NCBI RefSeq assembly: GCF_946902045.1
Contig: NZ_OX336253.1
Span: 62,001-126,000, forward strand
Direction of reading: 5' to 3'
Length of the DNA: 64,000 nucleotides
DNA from: Neisseria sp. Marseille-Q5346
GTDB lineage: Bacteria > Pseudomonadota > Gammaproteobacteria > Burkholderiales > Neisseriaceae
Shown here piece by piece: positions 6,650 through 39,458 of the stretch (position 1 is its first letter; every line of letters begins with the position of its first letter). The notes under the pieces are model-generated. The model was given only the letters and a program-made list of their open reading frames with translations, had not been told where the DNA came from and searched no databases. Both the position numbers and the translations under genes were made by a program.

Positions 6650-7534
6650 TTAGTTTTTTCCTGCAACAAAAGAGGCGGATTTTTCACCGGCAACACGGTA
6701 TTTCAAAGGTTCGATAGGTGTGCCGCCGTAATTGGCTTCCGAGCCGGCTGCAATACCGATCCAAACATTGTAAGGCGCGCCTCCTCTCAGACGTTGTTCG
6801 CTTCCGGCCGGAACGATACGGCTGAATACAACTTTTCCATCTTTGTCTGTAATGATCAGATTGCTTCGGTATTGGACTTTAATCCAAAGTTCGTCTTTCT
6901 CAACTTTGACGGCAGGCTTCTCTTCTTGTACGACGGCGGAAGCTGCTGAGGCTGCTTGATCATTAGCCACTTCAGGCTTGTTGGTAATTTCTTTTTTGCC
7001 CTCTTCCGTCATTTCGCTAACGGCAACATTATCCGTTTTTAAGGCAGGCGTTTTCATCGTATCAGCAACATCTTTGCTGTTTTGAATATTTGCCTGCTCG
7101 TTTTCAAAACTGGATTTGCTTTGCCAAAAGTAAACACCGCCTACAACCAAAGCCAGTGCGGCTATCCCCAATATCCATTTTGGGAAACCTTGTTTTTCAG
7201 TGTCTTTGTAGCTTAAGCCGGCATTGGCACTGCGTGTTACCGCGTATACATGGTCTTCAAGTTGCGGAGTAATGGAGAGCAAATGTTTGGCGATGGTTTG
7301 TTCGTCGATTTTCAGAAATCGTGCATATGAACGCAGATAGCCTGAAACAAAGACTAAACCGGGAAAGCCTGAATATTCGCCTTTTTCCAAAGCATCAATT
7401 TGTTCGGCAGACAGTTTCAACCGTGAAGCAACATCTTGAATATCGATTTTGGTATCAGTTCTGTGTTTGCGTAATTCATCCCCCAATGTTTTGGCGGCTT
7501 GTGTGTCGTAGTTGATTTTATCGTTATTTTCCAT
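6650..7534 (-). CDS. rodZ: RodZ-like helix-turn-helix membrane protein (DUF4115)
   Basis: Bitopic inner-membrane protein of 294 residues. Residues 15-85 form a Cro/CI-type HTH ([41 protein letters not shown]). A transmembrane helix lies near residues 119-137, then a low-complexity periplasmic linker. The C-terminal beta domain ([20 protein letters not shown]) matches DUF4115. RodZ links MreB to the elongasome in rod-shaped bacteria. If this organism is a coccus the role may differ, so the name rests on architecture and on the conserved position between pilW and ispG. Confidence 0.85.
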
Positions 7535-8290
7535 TTAGTGGCCTGTTGTGACAGTTTGTAGTTCGTCTGAATAGGGGAAGTTTGCCCTAAGTTGGGCTTC
7601 GTATTCGTATGCGGCGTGTTTATTGCCCAAGGCAGTGGCCAAGCGCCAGCCTAAAAGTAAATCGTCAGCCTGCAGGACATCGACTTTACTTTGGTATTGG
7701 CGGAAATAATAGTCGGCATCGTTCAGATTGCCTGCCATCATTTTGGTTCGGGCAAGCTCTTTGAAAGCAGGGAAGAATTGTGGATTGGCCGCCAAAGACC
7801 TTTCCAAATAGGCTTGAGCCAAAGAGTATTGGCCTAACCTTGCGCTGCAAATGCCTTTATTCATATTGGCAATAAAGGGGCTCGGGTAGGTCGGGTCGGC
7901 CAGTGCCTTATCAAAATAAGCCAAAGATTCGGCTGGTGCATTCATTTGATTGCACAAAAACCAACCGTAGTTGTTGTTGACTTCTGCGCTATCAGGTTTT
8001 AAAGACAATGCTTTAAGAAAGCTTTCTTGAGCTTTATCTTTGACCTTCAAATACTGATAAATCTCAGCGCGTACCAACCAAGCAAGGTCATTTTTTGAAT
8101 TGGACTTAAGCGCCTCTTCGATACTTTCAGTAGCTTGGCGATAGTTTTGGCCGCGCATATATTCTACAGCCAGTTGGGTTTTGATATTAGAAACTTGAAT
8201 GGCACGTTCTTTAGGGCTTGAGCCGGAAGAGGAAGCGCAGGCTGAAAGAGTCAGTGCGGTAATTAAAGCGAATCCGAACTTGATTTTCAT
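7535..8290 (-). CDS. pilW: Type IV pilus biogenesis lipoprotein PilW/PilF (TPR)
   Basis: Outer-membrane lipoprotein of 251 residues that stabilises type IV pili and helps secretin multimers form. It has a signal peptide with lipobox LSAC (Cys about residue 18) followed by tandem TPR repeats, such as AWLVRAEIYQYLKVKDKAQESF and AEVNNNYGWFLCNQMNAPAESL. A longer frame runs up to 8326 and would overlap rlmN. The start at 8290 (MKIKFGFALITA) is chosen because it begins the signal peptide and has AAGG six bases upstream. Its stop directly abuts the ATG of the rodZ-like gene. Confidence 0.92.
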   Translation of the reverse strand: MKIKFGFALITALTLSACASSSGSSPKERAIQVSNIKTQLAVEYMRGQNYRQATESIEEALKSNSKNDLAWLVRAEIYQYLKVKDKAQESFLKALSLKPDSAEVNNNYGWFLCNQMNAPAESLAYFDKALADPTYPSPFIANMNKGICSARLGQYSLAQAYLERSLAANPQFFPAFKELARTKMMAGNLNDADYYFRQYQSKVDVLQADDLLLGWRLATALGNKHAAYEYEAQLRANFPYSDELQTVTTGH

Positions 8291-31061: not shown

Positions 31062-31448
31062 ATGAAAACATCAGCTTTATTGGCGGCTTTGTTGGCTGCT
31101 CTGTCCCTGTCAGCATGCGGCGGTTCAGGCTCATCTTCTTCTGCCGTTTGTGACGAGTACGAAAAAGCATTTGCGGAAGCAACTAAAGACGTAGATGCCG
31201 CAACCAAAGACATGATGCAAAAATCTTTCGAACAAACCAAAGAAGCGTTGAAAAACCTGCCTGCAGACCAACGCGATGCAACCTGTAAAACTTCTTTGGA
31301 CGCTTTGAAAGGCGTTCCTGCTGCAGAAACTCCTGAAGAAAAAGCCGAAGAAGCCAAAGATGCCGCTGAAGAGGCTAAAGAAGAAGCAAAAGACGCAGCG
31401 GAAGATGCCAAAGAAGCTGCTGAAGACGCTAAAGAAGAAGCTAAATAA
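31062..31448 (+). CDS. Lipoprotein with Lys/Glu/Ala-rich repeat tail (DUF5339-like)
   Basis: Exported lipoprotein of 128 residues. The lipobox is LSAC (Cys19) followed by a Gly/Ser linker. Residues about 28-88 form a small helical domain with two cysteines (VCDEYEKAF and DATCKTSL) that could form one disulfide, resembling the DUF5339 family. The last 35 residues repeat EEAKEEAKDAAEDAKEAA-type units, predicted to be one long highly charged helix. Function unknown; the tail is reminiscent of hydrophilic LEA-like or peptidoglycan-spanning helices. An intrinsic terminator follows. Confidence 0.8.
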   Translation: MKTSALLAALLAALSLSACGGSGSSSSAVCDEYEKAFAEATKDVDAATKDMMQKSFEQTKEALKNLPADQRDATCKTSLDALKGVPAAETPEEKAEEAKDAAEEAKEEAKDAAEDAKEAAEDAKEEAK

Positions 31449-35671: not shown

Positions 35672-36535
35672 TTAGTCGATTTTGCGGAGAATTTCGCGTA
35701 GGGCTTTTTGCCAGTCGGACGGTTTGATACCGAATTCGGTCTCTAGGCGTGAGCAATCCATGATGCTGTATGCCGGACGCGGAGCGGGCAGGGGGTATTG
35801 ATCAGTGGTAATTGCGTTCAGTTCCGGAATGCGGAAGCTGTCGTCTAATTGGTGGGCCGTCTGAAAGATGGCTTTGGTAAATTCGTACCATGTTGCCGAT
35901 TTATTGCCACAGTAATGGAAGATGCCGCGTGGGGAGGTAGGCTGTTGCAGTAAACTGATGATGGCGTGAGCCAAGTCGCCTGCATAAGTCGGACAGCCGG
36001 TTTGGTCGTGAACAATGGAGAGGGAATCGCGTTCTTTGGCAAGGCGCAGCATGGTTTTGACGAAATTGCTGCCGTATTCGCTAAACAGCCATGAAGTACG
36101 GACGATTGTACTTTCAGGATGTGCGGCTAAAGCCAAAAGCTCGCCTGCTACTTTGGATTGACCGTAAGTGCTGCGCGGATTGGTGTAGTCGGTTTCGCGG
36201 TAAGGGCGTTTGCCTTCGCCGTCGAATACATAATCAGTGGAAATATGAATAAAGCGAGCGTGTGCGGCGCGGGCAGCTGCGGCCAGGTTGTGAACAGCGC
36301 TTGCATTGACGGCAAAAGCGGCTTCAGCGTTTTCTTCTGCTTTATCGACGGCAGTGTAAGCTGCGGCATTAACGATGGCATCTGGTTGGAAATTTTTGAT
36401 CATGTGATGCACGGCTTCGGTATCGGTAATGTCCAGCGAAGTAGAGTCGGTAGCAATCAGTTCCCAATCTTCGGGCAGGCGGTCGCGCAGACAACGGGCA
36501 AGCTGGCCTTTGGCTCCGGTCAATAAAGTACGCAT
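35672..36535 (-). CDS. rfbD: dTDP-4-dehydrorhamnose reductase
   Basis: Last enzyme of dTDP-L-rhamnose synthesis, an NAD(P)H-dependent short-chain reductase of 287 residues. The nucleotide-binding motif TGAKGQLARCL is at the N-terminus, and STDYVFDGEG and the catalytic YGQSK (Tyr-x-x-x-Lys) follow. The partner genes rfbA, rfbB and rfbC are not in this window, so the gene stands apart from its pathway. A DUS core at about 35856-35867 is read as FQTA. Confidence 0.92.
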   Translation of the reverse strand: MRTLLTGAKGQLARCLRDRLPEDWELIATDSTSLDITDTEAVHHMIKNFQPDAIVNAAAYTAVDKAEENAEAAFAVNASAVHNLAAAARAAHARFIHISTDYVFDGEGKRPYRETDYTNPRSTYGQSKVAGELLALAAHPESTIVRTSWLFSEYGSNFVKTMLRLAKERDSLSIVHDQTGCPTYAGDLAHAIISLLQQPTSPRGIFHYCGNKSATWYEFTKAIFQTAHQLDDSFRIPELNAITTDQYPLPAPRPAYSIMDCSRLETEFGIKPSDWQKALREILRKID

Positions 36536-36879
36536 GGTTGAGTATCTCCTCTAATAGCTGTTAAATAGGTGTTCGTGTCATTATAGTGTAAATACGACAA
36601 ATTCACATTATTGGCGTAGAACAAAATGCAGAGGCGGCTGTATTTGGGTAAATTGTCGATATTATCTATTCAGAATAATAACCACTTATTGGTATTATGT
36701 TTGTTTACTATAACTAGAGTTAAAATTCAGCTTTTAACAAGATAGATAAAGGATCTATGCTGTTTGAGAGAGTGTGAATCAATGTTAATGTTTTTATTGT
36801 TACTAGGATAATGGAATTTAAAAACAGGCGAAACTCTGTCCTTTTATCGGCAAATTCTACCGTTTGATATTTTTGAGTA

Positions 36880-36897
36880 AATATTTTGCAAAATATT
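36880..36897. promoter_or_regulatory. Perfect 18-bp palindrome upstream of RTX gene
   Basis: AATATTTTG followed directly by its complement CAAAATATT, 80 bases before the RTX start. The symmetry and position suggest a dimeric repressor or activator site. I cannot assign the protein. Confidence 0.5.
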
Positions 36898-36909
36898 ACT
36901 AAAATAATA

Positions 36910-36948
36910 ATTGGGCAAGGGCGGATTTGCTCGTTCCGTCAACCCAAT
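36910..36948 (+). promoter_or_regulatory. Stem-loop in the RTX gene leader
   Basis: ATTGGG pairs with CCCAAT and inside it GGCGGA pairs with TCCGTC with one G-T pair, leaving a nine-base loop. It ends about 16 bases before the GGGAG ribosome site, so it could affect mRNA stability or translation. Confidence 0.5.
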
Positions 36949-36976
36949 ATTTTATTAACTTTTGGGAGTAATTATT

Positions 36977-38431
36977 ATGGCATACTGTTACGGGGGGTAT
37001 TACACTAGACCCCTGGTTAGTTCTTACTGCGCTCCTGCGCCTAAGGCTTCCTACTCTTCTTACTACTGCGCTCCTGCAGCAAAATCTTCTGTTTCTATCG
37101 GCAGCATCGCTAGCATTGCCAGCGTCGGCGTGTCAGTAGTTAACGCGGTAACCGGTTTGGTTTCTGCTATTGCGGCTTTCTGCCCACCGGCAAAAACGCC
37201 TAACTACAAATGTGTTCCGGTTTGCCCACCTTACAACTGCGATCCAATCAAACCGATCCCATGTCCAAAACCACAACCTAAACCTCAGCCTAAGCCTCAA
37301 CCAAAACCTGAGCCTAAACCTGAGCCACAGCCAGAACCGCAACCAGAACCAAAACCACAACCAAAACCTGAGCCTAAGCCAGAACCGAAACCTGAGCCTA
37401 AACCAGAACCAAAACCTGAGCCTAAGCCAGAGCCAAAACCTGAGCCTAAACCAGAACCGAAACCTGAGCCAGACTGCAAAGACTGTGTTGACGACCATAA
37501 CCAAAACAACTCATACGGTCACGAAGACAAAAACCCAGGTAATGTCATCCGAGCTGAAGACTGCAAAGACGGCAACGTTATCCGTGGTACCGATGCTAAA
37601 GATACCATTTATGGTACTGCTTGCGAAGACATCATCTACGGTGGCAACGGCACAGACGTAATCTACGCCGGTGCTGGTAACGACACCATTTACGGTGATG
37701 CCGACGGTGACTCTCTGTACGGTGAAGAAGGTAAAGACTACCTGCAAGGTGGTGCCGGTAACGACTACCTGAACGGTGGTTCCGGTGCTGACATCATGCG
37801 CGGTGGCGACGGTAACGACGTTTACTTCGTTGACAATGCCAACGACCAAGTTATCGAGTACGGCAATGCACATGCCGGTATCGATACTGTTCGTACCGTT
37901 ATCGACTACACCCTGACCGATCACGTTGAAAACCTGATTTTGCAAGGTATGCAAAACCTGAACGGTACCGGTAACTCTTTGAACAACAACATCGAAGGTA
38001 ACGGCGGCAACAACCATCTGTACGGTTTGGCCGGCGACGACTGTCTGGTTGGTAAAGACGGTAACGACTACCTCGACGGCGGTGTCGGCAACGACATCCT
38101 GATCGGCGGTACCGGTAACGACACTTACTTCTTCGACAAAGGTTACGGTCACGACACTATCCGTGAAGAAAGTGGTAATGACACCCTGTTGTTCGGTAAA
38201 GGCGTTGCAGCTTCCGACGTATTGCTGAGCAAATCTGGTGCTAACCTGACTGTTTCTGTCGGTACTAACGACAGCATCACCATCGACGACTGGTTCACCG
38301 GTAACGATCACAAAGTTGAAAACTTCAAGTTTGCTGACGGTAGCACTTACCAAGTAACCGGCCACGGCGACTACTACTCTCTGTCTGCTGTGAACCAAAT
38401 CCAAGATCAGACTCAGGCTCCTGCCATCTGA
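36977..38431 (+). CDS. RTX-type calcium-binding protein with Pro-rich stalk
   Basis: Protein of 484 residues in four parts. Residues 1-75 are Tyr/Cys/Ser-rich with a duplicated SSYCAPA/YYCAPAA motif and a hydrophobic [18 protein letters not shown] stretch; no classical signal peptide is seen. Residues about 96-165 are a PKPEP/PKPQP repeat stalk. Two blocks of RTX nonapeptides follow ([19 protein letters not shown] and [18 protein letters not shown]). Residues about 400-455 match the haemolysin-type calcium-binding-related domain ([20 protein letters not shown]). Such C-termini usually direct type I secretion, but no T1SS genes are nearby. A TTG at 36962 could start earlier; GGGAG favours the ATG at 36977. 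Codons look optimised for high expression. Confidence 0.8.
37264..37470 (+). repeat. Tandem Pro-Lys-Pro-Glu coding repeat
   Basis: Units of 6-12 bases (variants of CCTAAACCTGAG) are repeated through about 207 bases of the RTX gene. All units are multiples of three, so copy-number slippage would change stalk length without shifting the frame. Confidence 0.9.
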
Positions 38432-38474
38432 TAGGATGATGGTTTTTAGGGTTTGTCCCTAAAATCAAAGTCTA

Positions 38475-38513
38475 AGGCCGTCTGAAACCGAGCTATAAGG
38501 TTTCAGACGGCCT
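38475..38513 (+). terminator. DUS terminator after RTX gene
   Basis: Inverted AG-DUS pair with a 14-base loop. Confidence 0.8.
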
Positions 38514-38594
38514 TTATTTTGTAAACAATCTGACGAAAGATGCCAAATTGGGCTAAAATACCAAATTCTTCTGTTTACCAAAGAGATACCCGAA

Positions 38595-39458
38595 ATGTCT
38601 GAAATCAGCTTGAAAAAAATCTACTCCGGCAAAGTCCGCGATTTGTACGAAATTGACGATAAACGTATGTTGATGGTTGCTTCCGACCGTCTGTCTGCAT
38701 TCGATGTGATTTTAGATGATCTGATTCCGGGTAAAGGAGAGATTCTGACGCAGATTTCCAATTTTTGGTTTAAAAAACTGGCTCATATCATGCCTAACCA
38801 TTTTACCGGTCAGACAGTTTACGATGTTTTGCCTGAAAATGAAGCTAAAGCTTTGGAGAAACGCGCCGTCGTGGCTAAAAAGCTCACTCCGGTGAAAGTG
38901 GAGGCTATTGTGCGCGGTTATCTGGCAGGTAGCGGTTGGAAAGATTATCAAAAGACAGGCTCTGTTTGCGGTATTCAACTGCCTGAAGGTATGCAGGAAG
39001 CGCAGCAGTTGCCTGAAGTGATTTTTACGCCATCGACCAAAGCCGCAGTTGGCGATCATGATGAAAACATCAGCTTTGAAGAATGCGAACGCATTATCGG
39101 AAAAGAATTGGCTGCGGAAGTGCGCGCTAAGGCGATTCAGCTTTACACGGAAGCGGCCGAATATGCCAAATCTCGCGGTATTATTATTTGCGACACTAAA
39201 TTTGAATTTGGTTTGGATGAGGAAGGTACGCTGACTTTGATGGACGAAGTGTTGACGCCTGACTCCAGTCGTTTTTGGCCTGCCGACCAATACAAAGTCG
39301 GCACCAATCCACCGTCTTTTGACAAACAATTTGTCCGCGACTGGCTGGAGCAAAGCGGTTGGAATAAAAAAGCGCCTGCGCCTAAAGTGCCTGCCGATGT
39401 GATTCAAAAAACAGTCGAAAAATATCAGGAAGCATTGACTTTGCTGACTCAGGGTTAA
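38595..39458 (+). CDS. purC: SAICAR synthase
   Basis: Purine biosynthesis enzyme that joins CAIR and aspartate. The 287-residue protein has [25 protein letters not shown] and [21 protein letters not shown], the standard signatures. It is the longer type similar to fungal and many beta-proteobacterial enzymes. A TAAAAT hexamer at about 38554-38559 is a plausible -10 box. Confidence 0.96.

What the first reader, a model, noticed from the sequence alone, without database searches (positions are those of the whole stretch)
36977..38431. RTX protein with repeat stalk but no signal peptide or secretion genes nearby
Seen: a Tyr/Cys-rich N-terminus with a duplicated YCAPA motif, about 70 residues of PKPEP repeats, two blocks of GGxGxD nonapeptides and a haemolysin-related C-terminal domain. 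Known: RTX C-termini usually leave through type I secretion, and Pro-rich stalks lift domains from a surface. Inference: a secreted or surface calcium-binding adhesin-like protein whose stalk length could vary by repeat slippage. The N-terminal region matches nothing I know. Codon use suggests strong expression.
Basis: partly seen in the sequence, partly recalled or inferred. Interest (0 to 1): 0.75.

Follow-up and report, generated by a model that had tools for sequence, protein, structure and literature searches.

The report
Cysteine-rich stalked RTX protein of Neisseria
A probably abundant, calcium-folding protein of some Neisseria, likely exported by type I secretion, carries a cysteine- and tyrosine-rich tail on a variable proline stalk, which is odd because such exported proteins usually have almost no cysteine.

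Summary
The ORF at 36977-38431 encodes 484 residues: an aromatic/Cys/Pro-rich N-part (1-92), a Pro-X stalk (93-166), a CxxC junction, an RTX beta-strand series (about 189-459) and a short C-terminal helix. A junction profile finds one such gene in each of 23 of 46 Neisseria genomes and none in 37 genomes of other Neisseriaceae. A complete type I secretion operon with an LssB-type ABC transporter lies elsewhere in the same chromosome. The family occurs in 23 of 36 genomes with a type I HlyD over the cut-off and in 0 of 10 without. Stalk length differs by 12-bp units between near-identical relatives, at two places. Codon bias ranks second of 46 window ORFs. Best reading: a type-I-secreted, Ca2+-folded surface or matrix protein whose last-exported tail is cross-linked or anchored through Cys/Tyr. 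Export is supported by genome context only; cross-linking is inference. New variant of a known kind.

The parts
36977..38431 (+). RTX protein gene, 484 aa
   Evidence: family in 23 of 46 Neisseria genomes
36964..36968 (+). ribosome-binding-site-like GGGAG upstream of the ATG
   Evidence: identical in all five genomes aligned, own included
36977..37252 (+). N-part, residues 1-92: aromatic/Cys/Pro-rich, with repeated aromatic-Cys-X-Pro; most hydrophobic 19 residues are 50-68
   Evidence: pLDDT 24-37 over residues 1-100; no Pfam match
37253..37474 (+). Pro-X stalk, residues 93-166, mostly PKPE/PKPQ; 12-bp repeat unit
37475..37546 (+). junction with C167-x-x-C170 and a conserved linker (N178, G188, N189 invariant in 21 rows)
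   Evidence: CxxC in 23 of 23 members
37541..38353 (+). RTX strand series, residues about 189-459, six GGxGxD motifs, PF06594 at 429-458
   Evidence: best solved-structure match CyaA, 7usl, E 8.6e-53, best stretch residues 202-455
38357..38428 (+). C-terminal tail with predicted helix 469-479 and an ending often like QIQ.QTQ; presumed type I secretion signal
   Evidence: low confidence; signal function inferred
38475..38513 (+). perfect 15-bp inverted repeat holding GCCGTCTGAA twice (Neisseria DNA uptake sequence, label recalled), 9-base loop, T-rich tail; likely terminator
   Evidence: not reported by the terminator scan, whose loop limit is 8

Best explanation
The gene encodes an exported, calcium-folding structural protein. 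The unlinked type I secretion system (TolC-like, LssB-type ABC transporter, HlyD) exports it C-terminus first. The RTX region folds on Ca2+ outside the cell. The Pro-X stalk spaces it from the last-exported N-part, whose Cys and Tyr residues, together with the CxxC at the stalk base, form disulfide (and perhaps tyrosine-based) links to other copies or to a surface partner. The result would be an abundant surface coat or matrix layer whose reach is tuned by stalk repeat number. Shown by computation: architecture, family, T1SS genes and their co-occurrence, repeat-unit indels, codon bias, Cys enrichment. Inferred: export of this protein, Ca2+ binding, cross-linking, location and role.
For: T1SS operon in the same chromosome: ABC 887 bits for TIGR03375 (cut-off 693), HlyD 324 bits (cut-off 209); TolC-like 90 bits, below its cut-off of 225. 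Family in 23 of 36 genomes with HlyD over cut-off and 0 of 10 without (Fisher p 0.0006, not corrected for descent). Confident RTX strands. Cys: 5-14 in each of 23 members (218 in 11,079 aa) against 0 in eight other Neisseria RTX ORFs (8,970 aa; not a systematic sample); 3.5% of residues before the junction, 6.4% in it, 0.8% after it (21 members). [YFWH]-Cys-X-Pro occurs 27 times in the N-parts of 14 hand-chosen representatives against a mean of 1.6 and maximum of 9 in 3000 shuffles. A review states that most RTX proteins have none or one Cys (PMC6891781, one passage). Codon bias second of 46 in the window. Two different 12-bp deletions in the stalk of near-identical relatives. Another review states that proteins needing disulfides have folded properly after export by one-step systems (PMC6302416, passages).
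Against: No experiment: secretion, abundance, disulfides and location are untested. N-part sequence is not conserved between clades. G034 (L040) keeps one [YFWH]-Cys-X-Pro and six Cys; G024 (L050) and G013 (L045) have none of that motif, and G001 (L052) and G024 (L050) have one N-part Cys each, so the N-part Cys may not be essential. Codon bias is near the local median in five of 17 family loci (L052, L045, L047, L048, L050). The exporter need not be dedicated, as the chromosome holds four other RTX genes. CxxC could be a metal site. The low model confidence of the N-part rests on 21 sequences and is no proof of disorder.
Confidence: 0.48

Rival explanations
1. Cell-tethered small RTX adhesin of the retention type: the N-part lodges in or behind the TolC-like channel after C-terminus-first export, the stalk extends outward, and the RTX region is displayed.
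For: LssB-type transporters serve retained adhesins of the LapA/RtxA kind (recalled). A hydrophobic stretch before the stalk would suit a plug: the best 19-residue mean is 1.94 in the four nearest members (own included) and 1.3-1.6 in three others. [quoted passage not shown] mucosa and its TolC similar to an N. sicca protein (PMC3075217, one passage).
Against: No LapG-type protease (PF06035, E up to 0.001) in any of 46 Neisseria genomes; the N-part gets no confident fold; 14 of 21 members have no 19-residue stretch above 1.0.
Confidence: 0.22
2. Soluble secreted RTX protein with an effector, competition or calcium-buffering role; the N-part is a fast-evolving effector and the Cys stay reduced or form only internal disulfides.
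For: N-parts diverge beyond recognition, and in G005 a different N-terminus sits on an RTX protein at the same purC-linked site (L049), as in N-terminal swapping.
Against: The N-part is low-complexity, with no Pfam match and no confident fold; in 11 loci read by eye I saw no gene shared next door except purC in several (no search for hlyC or immunity genes was made).
Confidence: 0.19
3. Metal-binding surface protein: the CxxC and other Cys/His bind zinc, copper or haem.
For: CxxC in 23 of 23 members; some His-rich N-parts (7-10 His in the first 90 residues of L021, L022, L041, L006 and L042).
Against: No His in the first 90 residues of seven of 21 members, own included; no conserved partner residues apparent beside CxxC.
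Confidence: 0.11

Closest known systems
RTX proteins exported by type I secretion (CyaA, HlyA, serralysins, I.3 lipases)
   Same: GGxGxD nonapeptides, PF00353 and PF06594 in 21 of 21 members scanned, no apparent signal peptide, T1SS in genome; CyaA is the best solved-structure match
   Different: 5-14 cysteines where most of these have none or one; short; Y/C/P-rich N-part without known domain and a Pro-X stalk
LapA/MpIBP/RtxA-type retained RTX adhesins (features recalled)
   Same: LssB-type T1SS in the genome, N-terminal region next to an extended spacer, C-terminal RTX
   Different: 484 aa, not thousands; no extender-domain match in Pfam; no LapG protease found in 46 Neisseria genomes; no confident N-terminal fold
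FrpC/FrpA of Neisseria meningitidis
   Same: Neisseria RTX protein with variable N-terminus; presumed T1SS substrate; possible surface link (FrpC facts from passages of PMC5472700)
   Different: FrpC-like proteins are 120-200 kDa and FrpC self-cleaves at Asp-Pro; here 484 aa with one Asp-Pro, at 89-90, which is Asn-Pro or Glu-Pro in G063 and G009. Cysteine content of FrpC was not checked by name, and frpD was not searched for
Disulfide- and tyrosine-linked structural proteins such as high-glycine-tyrosine keratin-associated proteins
   Same: Composition of some N-parts (Gly/Tyr/Cys, for example L044, L013); resemblance recalled from memory, not tested
   Different: bacterial, predicted T1SS cargo, fused to an RTX domain; no homology claimed

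Membership tests
RTX protein / T1SS substrate | tandem GGxGxDxUx nonapeptides predicted to form a beta-roll | tested here: met
   Ca2+ binding itself not testable here
RTX protein / T1SS substrate | no N-terminal signal peptide | tested here: inconclusive
   no strongly hydrophobic core in residues 1-38; no predictor was run
RTX protein / T1SS substrate | uncleaved C-terminal secretion signal | tested here: inconclusive
   partly conserved C-terminal tail with a low-confidence helix; function not testable here
RTX protein / T1SS substrate | ABC/HlyD/TolC exporter in the genome | tested here: met
   the TolC-like component is below the TIGR01844 cut-off; that it serves this protein is not shown
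RTX protein / T1SS substrate | cysteine scarcity (characteristic, not strictly defining) | tested here: not met
   13 Cys here, 5-14 in 23 members, against none or one in most RTX proteins (PMC6891781)
LapA-type retained RTX adhesin | LapG-type periplasmic protease in the genome | tested here: not met
   0 of 46 genomes
LapA-type retained RTX adhesin | folded N-terminal retention module and long extender repeats | tested here: not met
   pLDDT 24-37 for residues 1-100, from a 21-row alignment; 484 aa; no extender match in Pfam
LapA-type retained RTX adhesin | retention at the cell surface | not testable with these tools
   needs cell fractionation or labelling
FrpC family | conserved Asp-Pro self-processing site | tested here: not met
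   only one Asp-Pro; residue 89 is D, N or E in near-identical relatives
FrpC family | FrpD lipoprotein partner | not tested
   no search for frpD was made

The most novel reading that the evidence does not exclude
The family is a cross-linked extracellular material: type I secretion delivers an abundant protein whose Y/C/P-rich tails polymerise outside the cell by disulfide and tyrosine chemistry while Ca2+ locks the RTX regions, giving a keratin-like coat or matrix with mesh size set by slippage-prone stalk repeats. It would be a natural use of cysteine cross-links by type I secretion, whose RTX cargo otherwise mostly avoids cysteine.
Probability: 0.2. Interest if true: 0.75.

Novelty: new variant of a known kind. 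Interest (0 to 1): 0.5.

Why it matters
Rarity of cysteine is described as a conspicuous feature of RTX proteins (PMC6891781). A family with one gene per genome that breaks this rule in 23 of 46 sampled Neisseria genomes, often with strong codon bias, makes a clear test case: does type I secretion handle cysteine-rich natural cargo, and are the cysteines used as cross-links outside the cell? It may also be a major unstudied surface or secreted protein of these species.

Tried and rejected
Rejected: 'no secretion system' (the genome has an operon); LapG-controlled release; FrpC-type self-splicing; a known RNA family near the gene (no Rfam match up to E 1 in 36500-38600); a conserved partner gene (LemA/TPM-domain-like genes, names recalled from their sequence, lie upstream only in some loci); a Cdz-like glycine-zipper bacteriocin (PMC5380434, passages: those are 84-86 aa with glycine zippers; the strongest hydrophobic stretch here is in 4 of 21 members). 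Promoter-like sites were 5 found against 2.6 expected and tell nothing. The RTX half has matches in 1,665 plasmid records, all under 60% identity, which does not help. The first codon-bias run took an EF-G-like fragment (name recalled) as reference by mistake; the corrected run with tuf gave the same rank. A first regular-expression count of family ORFs put two members among the others; one search is the corrected count. Fold comparison could not be run. Paper searches (listings of titles and starts of abstracts, at most 10-15 papers each) listed none that describes this family. One genome paper on four throat isolates, passages only (PMC7643975), lists frpA and frpC as not present; the term 'type I secretion' does not occur in its main text.

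Full report
What is there. The ORF at 36977-38431 (+) encodes 484 residues. The ATG is preceded by GGGAG, and M-[AST]-Y starts 15 of 21 aligned members, nine of the 21 starts having been set by hand. Residues 1-92 are rich in Ala, Pro, Ser, Tyr and Val, with seven Cys; residues 93-166 are a Pro-X run of mostly K, E and Q; C167-x-x-C170 opens a conserved linker; residues about 189-459 carry the RTX repeats; a short helix ends the chain. Pfam finds PF00353 (six stretches) and PF06594, and both in 21 of 21 members. GGxGxD is far above shuffles, 6 against a maximum of 2 in 2000. AlphaFold2 with the 21-row alignment gives block means of pLDDT of 24-29 for residues 1-90 and 37 for 91-100, 51-55 for 101-150, 38-45 for 151-180, and mostly above 90 for 201-410. 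The strands run from 189 to 459, mostly nine residues apart, with wider steps between about 291 and 329, through both GGxGxD blocks. I read this as one roll; I did not inspect coordinates. With 21 sequences the low N-part confidence is no proof of disorder. The best solved relative by sequence is CyaA (7usl, E 8.6e-53, best stretch residues 202-455).

Where it is. The genus is taken from the uptake sequence (recalled) and from named records of N. sicca, Neisseria sp. HMSC077D05 and N. weixii, whose contig lengths equal those of contigs of G029, G031 and G015, listed as the same genus. The species of the window was not determined. The fourth locus, an Acidimicrobiales MAG, is only a partial RTX match.

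The family. A profile of the junction (A3) finds exactly one place in each of 23 of 46 Neisseria genomes and none in the 37 genomes of other Neisseriaceae genera (E up to 0.001). In samples at higher rank it finds 7 of 399 genomes of the order, all of this genus, and 1 of 398 of the phylum, the own genome (both E up to 1e-5). These samples overlap with earlier ones and hold few Neisseria. Seventeen of the 22 other members were compared for gene order: 11 lie between rmlD and purC as in the window, in some with further genes between; 13 lie next to purC; four showed neither neighbour within the stretch. Gene names rmlD, purC and pnp are recalled from their sequence. The N-part alone is found in four genomes, so it changes quickly while its composition persists.

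The cysteines. A review says that most RTX proteins have none or one cysteine (PMC6891781, one passage); others say that RTX toxins, I.3 lipases and S-layer proteins lack them (passages of PMC8953716, and PMC3034196). All 23 family members have 5-14 (218 in 11,079 residues), and all have the CxxC. Eight other RTX ORFs from Neisseria, four of them from the same genome, have 0 in 8,970 residues. These eight are those in stretches that I had fetched, not a systematic sample. A further ORF, in G005 at the same purC-linked site but without the junction, has 5 and is probably a relative whose N-terminus was replaced; it is counted in neither group. In 21 members Cys make up 3.5% of residues before the junction, 6.4% in it and 0.8% after it. 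[YFWH]-Cys-X-Pro occurs 27 times in 14 hand-chosen N-parts against 1.6 expected from shuffles. It is absent in two of the 14 (L045, L050) and single in five (L040, L043, L052, L046, L047).

Export. No HlyD- or TolC-family match lies in the window. At 2158-2163 kb of the same chromosome stand a TolC-like gene, an ABC gene over the cut-off for the LssB type and a HlyD gene over its cut-off. HlyD over the cut-off occurs in 36 of 46 genomes; whether the ABC partner is of the LssB type was checked in the own genome only. All 23 family-positive genomes are among these and none among the other 10 (Fisher p 0.0006). Common descent is not corrected for, and three of the ten are under 90% complete. The chromosome holds four other RTX genes, so the exporter need not be dedicated. 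LapG-type proteases were found in none of the 46 genomes. Proteins that need disulfides have been reported to fold after export by one-step systems (PMC6302416, passages), so cysteines are no bar in principle.

The stalk. In four near-identical relatives the Pro-X run is 74, 74, 70 and 70 residues long; the two short forms have different 12-bp deletions, as expected from in-frame slippage or recombination between repeats. In the other aligned members the first uninterrupted run counted is 12-114 residues, and in G064 the repeat is of another Pro-rich type, PHKPVD/PQKPVD. One genome per species was available, so variation within a species was not tested.

Expression. With tuf codons as reference the gene scores 0.611, second of 46 mechanically listed window ORFs of at least 150 aa and above pnp (0.537). 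The four other RTX genes of the genome score 0.28-0.37. In 17 other family loci the gene ranks first in ten, second in three and lower in four; in five it is near the local median (G000 tuf was the reference for all). Strong expression is therefore likely in the window's clade and the sicca-like clade, and less clear elsewhere.

How it most likely works. From established knowledge, type I substrates leave C-terminus first and RTX repeats fold on external Ca2+. The N-part therefore leaves last, with reactive Cys and Tyr, on a stiff Pro-X spacer. I infer that these residues oxidise outside the cell, or at the envelope, into links with other copies or a surface partner. Nothing here shows that step. 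The retained-adhesin, soluble-effector and metal-site readings remain open.

Novelty. The parts are known kinds; the combination of a Cys-rich tail, Pro-X stalk and RTX domain as a genus-level family departs from a stated rule for RTX proteins. I found no paper describing it in the searches (capped listings, plus passages of the papers cited); most subscription papers are not held. Hence 'new variant of a known kind'.

Noticed in passing
L049:6055-7851 (G005): At the same purC-linked site an RTX protein with a quite different acidic N-terminus and no CxxC junction or PKPEP stalk: apparent replacement of the N-terminal half at one locus.
   Followed up: partly
L040 (G034): In a close relative the N-part has lost most Cys and aromatic-Cys-X-Pro motifs while junction and RTX region stay 93% identical: mosaic or relaxed N-part.
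   Followed up: no
38475-38513: Two inverted copies of GCCGTCTGAA (uptake sequence, recalled) form the likely terminator of the gene.
   Followed up: partly
31062-31448: Small lipoprotein-like ORF (by eye) with Glu/Ala/Lys-rich tandem repeats, 21- to 54-bp units.
   Followed up: no
L034:4593-5369 and 7444-8220 (own genome, about 467 kb): Two 258-aa reductase-like ORFs (by eye) with the same first 60 residues stand on both sides of msbA.
   Followed up: no
L093 (G064): A family member whose stalk is made of PHKPVD/PQKPVD repeats in place of PKPEP: the stalk sequence changes while its Pro-rich character persists.
   Followed up: no
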